A stretch of DNA of 64,000 nucleotides from K189A clade bacterium. GTDB lineage: Bacteria; Pseudomonadota; Gammaproteobacteria; Pseudomonadales; Azotimanducaceae. The notes under the pieces were generated by a model, which had not been told where the DNA came from, searched no databases, and saw only the letters and a program-made list of their open reading frames with translations. Shown in pieces: positions 34,900-37,089 of the stretch. The DNA lies in NCBI GenBank assembly GCA_902528515.1, contig CABZTD010000002.1, positions 1 through 64,000 of the forward strand, in the 5' to 3' direction. The first letter of the stretch is position 1; each line of letters starts with the position of its first letter. Both the position numbers and the translations under genes were made by a program.

Positions 34900-36663
<1,764 letters not shown>

Positions 36664-36750: not shown

Positions 36751-37089
36751 ATGCAGCTAGCTAATATGAATGTCGGGAATGGACAGCCTCTTTTCGTAAT
36801 CGCGAAGCCCTGCGTGATTGAATCAGAAAATATGGTCATGAGCACTACACAAACCCTCAAGCGAACGGAGAAAGTACTAGCCATTAGCCTAATTTTTAAA
36901 AGCTCTTTCGATAAAGCCAACGGTTCTTCTATAGACAGTGATCGTGGATTTGCCGTTCACAACTCGTTTTTGGGAAGAGAGTCTGCCGGGTGTAAATCCG
37001 ATGGACCGCTGGTTCTGGTGAATCAATTGCTGGAGCAGCTGCAAGCGATTGATGCCACGGTTAAGAAATTGCCACGCCCTGAAGAATAA
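36751..37089 (+). pseudogene. kdsA: Collapsed remnant of KdsA (Kdo-8-phosphate synthase), in-frame internal deletion
   Basis: An open frame of 112 codons stands where kdsA belongs, between pyrG and eno. Its first ~65 residues align with the KdsA N-terminus (NVGNGQPLFVIAKPCVIESE, then LIFKSSFDKANGSSID and DRG), and its last ~35 residues with the KdsA C-terminus (CKSDGPLVLVNQLLEQLQAI). About 170-180 central residues of the usual ~280 are missing, including the barrel strands that carry most substrate-binding and catalytic residues. The surviving part also has changes: GPCVIES is KPCVIES and KANRSS is KANGSS. The frame is still open, so loss may be recent, but it cannot encode a working Kdo-8-phosphate synthase. 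Confidence 0.88.

What the first reader, a model, noticed from the sequence alone, without database searches (positions are those of the whole stretch)
36751..37089. kdsA reduced to its two ends, joined in frame
At the canonical kdsA place the sequence keeps ~65 N-terminal and ~35 C-terminal residues and has lost ~175 between them, with substitutions in both conserved remaining motifs (G to K before PCVIES; R to G in KANRSS). KdsA is needed for Kdo and so for normal inner-core LPS, while lpxA, lpxB, lpxD and fabZ are present nearby. Either a second kdsA exists, or the outer membrane lacks Kdo or uses another sugar.
Basis: partly seen in the sequence, partly recalled or inferred. Interest (0 to 1): 0.72.

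Follow-up and report, generated by a model that had tools for sequence, protein, structure and literature searches.

The report
Dead kdsA copy, replaced elsewhere
A marine bacterium carries the decayed remains of one gene for making the sugar Kdo, a part of its outer coat, but it also has an intact gene for the same step elsewhere, apparently picked up from related bacteria, so it probably still makes Kdo.

Summary
In detail: between pyrG and eno lies a kdsA keeping codons 1-66 and about 30 C-terminal residues, with 174 residues lost and 15 unalignable codons in their place. It is a pseudogene: changes on its own branch fall evenly over codon positions (9/10/8), unlike eno (5/2/26) and pyrG (8/1/31). 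The alarm about the outer membrane is not supported: the same assembly holds a full-length KdsA on contig C26 (283 aa, 388 bits against a cut-off of 314), plus kdsB and waaA. The remnant is of the metal-dependent kind (PCVIES); the intact copy of the metal-independent kind (GMNVLES, KCDGP). Two close relatives hold both genes intact; seven of seven examined relatives outside the clade lack the second gene at its site; its tree position points to Cellvibrionaceae. So the lineage gained a second kdsA and this genome then lost the old one. Two other genomes of the genus show a completed version: metal-independent gene only, pyrG and eno 37 and 39 bases apart. An ordinary xenologous replacement, mildly interesting as an intermediate stage.

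The parts
36751..36948 (+). Retained 5' part of the old kdsA (codons 1-66, metal-dependent kind, PCVIES motif)
   Evidence: Alignment with G020 and G007 intact genes; 82% nt identity to G020; profile match
36949..36993 (+). 45 bases of filler with no detectable source; stands where 522 bases of kdsA are lost
   Evidence: Local alignment to the lost kdsA part no better than shuffles in 4 of 4 comparisons; a 29-base piece occurs once in the held genome at up to 3 mismatches
36994..37089 (+). Retained 3' part of the old kdsA (KSDGP, then ~25 C-terminal residues), with a further 12-base deletion and an altered end
35029..36663 (+). pyrG (CTP synthase), intact upstream neighbour; start set by me at MTRYIF inside ORF 34930-36663
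   Evidence: ORF list; Pfam PF06418 and PF00117
37119..38423 (+). eno (enolase), intact downstream neighbour
   Evidence: ORF list; Pfam PF00113 and PF03952; 97% identical in G020

Best explanation
The feature is a pseudogene of the lineage's original kdsA, of the metal-dependent (Cys) class. An ancestor of this clade gained a second, metal-independent (Asn class) kdsA by horizontal transfer, as a single gene placed between a CoA-transferase gene and a small uncharacterised gene, most likely from a Cellvibrionaceae-like donor. With two enzymes able to make Kdo-8-phosphate, the old gene became dispensable; in this genome it suffered a large internal deletion with filler, smaller deletions and near-neutral substitution. 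Kdo synthesis then runs on the acquired enzyme. Shown: the decay, the intact second gene in the same assembly, both genes in two close relatives, the empty insertion site in relatives outside the clade, and the tree placement. Inferred: that the acquired gene is expressed and active, the order gain-then-loss (from the relatives with both), and the donor.
For: Full-length KdsA at C26 in the same genome, 482 bits over its whole length to solved KdsA 1d9e, under purifying selection (pairwise dN/dS 0.03-0.07). C26 matches G020 at 92% over 5.9 kb, and its first 20 kb have the same G+C (53.6%) as the window; the window's own pyrG and eno are 92% and 94% identical to G020. Motifs separate the classes, as described in PMC3052366 (passages seen). 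G020 and G007 hold both intact genes. Near-neutral pattern in the remnant: 27 branch-specific changes in 273 bases, 19 at positions 1-2, against 7 of 33 in eno (p 0.0002), 9 of 40 in pyrG (p 0.0001) and 12 of 38 in the acquired kdsA (p 0.003). In 7 of 7 examined relatives outside the clade (G001, G011, G016, G017, G021, G024, G029) the CoA-transferase gene and the small gene are adjacent without kdsA. The tree puts the four acquired copies together (SH-aLRT 99) next to Aestuariicella/Pseudomaricurvus (86).
Against: The genome is a 75% complete assembly in 89 contigs, so placing C26 in it rests on binning and similarity, not on linkage, and C26 starts 133 bases beyond the end of its kdsA, so the small gene on the far side is seen only in G007, G020 and G028. 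The donor branch has moderate support (86, quick tree of 87 of 120 collected rows). The same gene on the G020 branch also shows 5 of 12 changes at positions 1-2, not significantly different from the window's branch (p 0.15). The window's branch is faster than G020's in every gene counted (eno 33 to 19, pyrG 40 to 30, acquired kdsA 38 to 21, ABC transporter gene on C26 57 to 33; remnant 27 to 12). Pairwise dN/dS of the remnant against G020 is 0.36, not 1, which would fit loss part of the way along the branch. No expression or activity data exist.
Confidence: 0.92

Rival explanations
1. Assembly or binning artefact: the deletion is false, or C26 belongs to another organism.
For: Fragmented, incomplete assembly; no reads available.
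Against: The remnant carries scattered changes in both retained pieces plus smaller deletions, which a misjoin does not make; the first 20 kb of C26 have the window's G+C and C26 has a divergence from G020 close to the window's; listed contamination is 0.
Confidence: 0.05
2. The organism lacks Kdo or uses another sugar in its inner core.
For: Only the loss of the canonical gene; the one KdsD-like match is a SIS-domain protein under the kpsF family's cut-off (152.9 against 203.7 bits).
Against: Intact KdsA, KdsB (237 bits against 155) and a WaaA-family protein in the same genome.
Confidence: 0.02
3. The 112-residue product is a retained small protein with a new role.
For: The frame is open and the two ends are in frame.
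Against: Flat codon-position pattern; survival of an open frame by chance is about even; two other genomes of the genus lost the gene entirely.
Confidence: 0.03

Closest known systems
Metal-dependent KDO8P synthase (Cys class KdsA; e.g. 1fwn, recalled to be from Aquifex)
   Same: Remnant keeps PCVIES and SDGP of this class and matches KdsA N-termini, 1fwn among them
   Different: 174 internal residues missing; cannot form the barrel (inference)
Metal-independent KDO8P synthase (Asn class KdsA; 1d9e, recalled to be from E. coli)
   Same: The intact copy on C26 aligns over residues 3-282 with GMNVLES and CDGP
   Different: Not at the pyrG-kdsA-eno place; sits elsewhere in the genome
Bacteria with two KdsA proteins (solved proteins named aldolase 1, 3t4c, and aldolase 2, 3sz8; recalled to be from Burkholderia species, no call shows that one genome holds both)
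   Same: One protein scores nearer to each class
   Different: Here one of the pair has decayed

Membership tests
Pseudogene of metal-dependent kdsA | Homology to kdsA at the orthologous place | tested here: met
Pseudogene of metal-dependent kdsA | Disabling lesion | tested here: met
   174 of 278 residues lost
Pseudogene of metal-dependent kdsA | Loss of codon-position bias in changes | tested here: met
   9/10/8 against 5/2/26 in eno and 8/1/31 in pyrG; not significantly different from the 12 changes on the G020 branch (p 0.15)
Metal-independent KdsA (C26 copy) | Asn in place of the metal-binding Cys; CDGP loop | tested here: met
   class definition from passages of PMC3052366
Metal-independent KdsA (C26 copy) | Full length over the family's curated cut-off | tested here: met
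   388 bits against 314
Metal-independent KdsA (C26 copy) | Kdo-8-phosphate synthase activity without metal | not testable with these tools
   None
Xenologous gene replacement | Foreign origin of the replacing gene | tested here: met
   Tree and empty site in 7 of 7 examined relatives; donor support moderate (86)

The most novel reading that the evidence does not exclude
The genus repeatedly swaps a metal-requiring KdsA for a metal-free one because it saves zinc or iron in metal-poor seawater; this genome is caught mid-way, and G026 and G030 show the end state reached in a separate branch of the host tree.
Probability: 0.15. Interest if true: 0.5.

Novelty: new member of a known kind. Interest (0 to 1): 0.27.

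Why it matters
It removes a false alarm about a Gram-negative bacterium without Kdo. It also gives a natural series (old gene only, both genes, new gene plus remnant, new gene with a closed gap) for the replacement of a metalloenzyme by its metal-free counterpart, useful for asking whether such swaps are neutral or driven by metal supply.

Tried and rejected
Filler origin: no match to the lost kdsA part of G020 or G007, on either strand, better than shuffles (152, 327, 925 and 304 of 1000 shuffles reached the score), and no second copy of a 29-base piece in the held genome at up to 3 mismatches. Its source stays open.

One or two acquisitions of the metal-independent gene in the genus: the KdsA tree separates the G000/G007/G020/G028 copies from those of G010/G026/G030 (the latter have long branches), but the AU test on a smaller tree of 44 rows does not reject one clade (p 0.48). 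The enolase tree (17 genomes, without G028, whose eno was not found) rejects a single host clade (p 2.7e-6; the groups were named after the KdsA tree was seen, and G010 joins G026/G030 there with only 56/15 support). The genomic places differ. Two gains are likely, not proven. G010 and G030 are listed with 4% and 7% contamination.

Literature: searches for KDO8P synthase and metal classes (20 of 4,649 rows listed), kdsA with transfer, paralogue or pseudogene terms (15 of 980), OM182 with lipopolysaccharide (2 of 2) and metallo/non-metallo KDO8PS with gene loss (10 of 1,445): in the listings I saw, no title or abstract start reports this case. Of PMC3052366 I saw passages. Most subscription journals are not held.

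Full report
What is there. Between pyrG and eno the window has a kdsA-like open frame, 36751-37089, 112 residues. Its first ~70 residues match KdsA models (NF003543 2.8e-19; TIGR01362 56 bits against a cut-off of 314). Compared with the intact gene at the same place in the close relatives G020 and G007 (278 residues each), codons 1-66 are kept, residues 67-240 (G020 numbering) are lost, and KSDGP plus about 25 C-terminal residues are kept. In place of the lost part stand 45 bases of filler with no detectable source. Twelve more bases (NSWP) and the original last residues are also lost.

It is a pseudogene. Using G007 as outgroup to G000 and G020, I counted changes specific to the window's branch in 91 alignable codons (66 + 25); the filler, the five KSDGP codons and the altered end were left out, and sites where all three differ do not count. 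They fall 9/10/8 on codon positions 1/2/3, against 5/2/26 in 350 codons of eno, 8/1/31 in 399 of pyrG, 10/2/26 in 283 of the intact second kdsA and 16/4/37 in 586 of an ABC transporter gene near it. Fisher tests on positions 1-2 against 3 give p 0.0002 (eno), 0.0001 (pyrG) and 0.003 (second kdsA) (the transporter was not tested). The rate (27 of 273, 9.9%) is near the third-position rate of eno (26 of 350) and pyrG (31 of 399). Against this: the G020 branch of the same gene has 5 of 12 changes at positions 1-2, not significantly different (p 0.15); the window's branch is faster than G020's in every gene counted; and pairwise dN/dS is 0.36, so loss may have come part of the way along the branch. 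An open frame after such changes is about an even chance (47% of simulations).

A second kdsA exists. The window's genome (G000, 2.13 Mb, 89 contigs, 75% complete) holds three PF00793 matches: one at C13 (374-aa frame), one at C26 and the remnant. Of these only C26 and the remnant match the KdsA model TIGR01362, C26 with 388 bits. The C26 protein (283 aa) aligns over residues 3-282 with solved KdsA 1d9e, 482 bits. kdsB (237 bits against 155) and a waaA-family protein are present; a SIS-domain protein of 199 residues is the only kdsD-like match and stays under the cut-off (152.9 against 203.7). I did not search for kdsC.

The two genes are of different classes. In metal-dependent KdsA a cysteine is among the metal ligands; in metal-independent KdsA an asparagine replaces it (PMC3052366, passages seen). 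The remnant has PCVIES and KSDGP, the C26 copy GMNVLES and KCDGP.

Relatives show the stages. Of 37 genomes of the genus (G000 and 36 others), 34 have a KdsA match; G012, G022 and G033 have none and are 58-81% complete. By motif, 27 have only the metal-dependent gene, three (G007, G010, G020) have both intact, and four have the metal-independent gene without an intact metal-dependent one: G000 (remnant); G026 and G030 (pyrG and eno separated by 39 and 37 bases, a clean loss); and G028, whose eno was not found, so its site cannot be judged.

Origin of the second gene. In G000, G007, G020 and G028 it lies next to a CoA-transferase family III gene (Pfam run on G000's protein); on its other side G007, G020 and G028 have a small gene without a Pfam match (G020's protein scanned), while C26 ends there. 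In 7 of 7 examined relatives without it (G001, G011, G016, G017, G021, G024, G029; 7 of 19 loci fetched) those two genes are adjacent; the spacing in G001, G011, G024 and G029 is about 140-210 bases. G000's copy is 85-86% identical to those of Aestuariicella albida and Pseudomaricurvus, where the gene sits at the pyrG-eno place; the tree agrees (SH-aLRT 99 for the four copies, 86 for the group with these Cellvibrionaceae, 87 of the 120 rows collected). Of 80 named loci with this class of gene, 51 show pyrG and eno motifs nearby and 29 do not, the three records that match G020, G028 and G007 among them. In the order, 293 genomes were searched with the C26 protein (G000 included; the others at least 90% complete) and 291 matched; 17 did so more weakly than 1e-90, among them 13 of 13 other members of the same family. 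Two of the 17 are so weak that they may be partial genes. By E-value, not by motif, the family thus looks metal-dependent in a mostly metal-independent order; among the genomes outside the genus I read the motif only for G037 (metal-independent) and G040 (metal-dependent).

Likely names. Contig lengths suggest that G020, G007 and G028 are the public assemblies JADHNQ01 (Pseudomonadales bacterium BS301-5m-G72), SHAE01 (OM182 bacterium MED-G155) and PBTJ01 (Gammaproteobacteria bacterium NP63); this is inferred. The organism is then an OM182-type marine gammaproteobacterium.

Verdict. A decayed metal-dependent kdsA made redundant by an acquired metal-independent one: a known kind of event (recalled), well documented here because relatives preserve the earlier and later stages. 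A selective reason (saving metal) is possible and untested.

Noticed in passing
L044 (G030) 1461-1497 and L048 (G026) 1462-1500: pyrG and eno lie only 37 and 39 bases apart with kdsA cleanly gone, while a metal-independent kdsA sits elsewhere, beside an LCAT-family gene (Pfam for G030, by look of the sequence for G026).
   Followed up: partly
order-wide search: 13 of 13 sampled other members of the window's family score like the metal-dependent class, while 274 of 291 matching genomes of the order score like the metal-independent class (by E-value only). Where looked at, both classes occupy the same pyrG-kdsA-eno place.
   Followed up: partly
L069 1474-2073 (G000 contig C3): The only KdsD-like protein found is a 199-residue SIS domain protein with no other Pfam match; the usual gene may be in the missing quarter of the assembly.
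   Followed up: no
window 36949-36993: 45 bases of filler at the deletion junction with no source found in the lost gene or, for a 29-base piece, in the held genome.
   Followed up: yes
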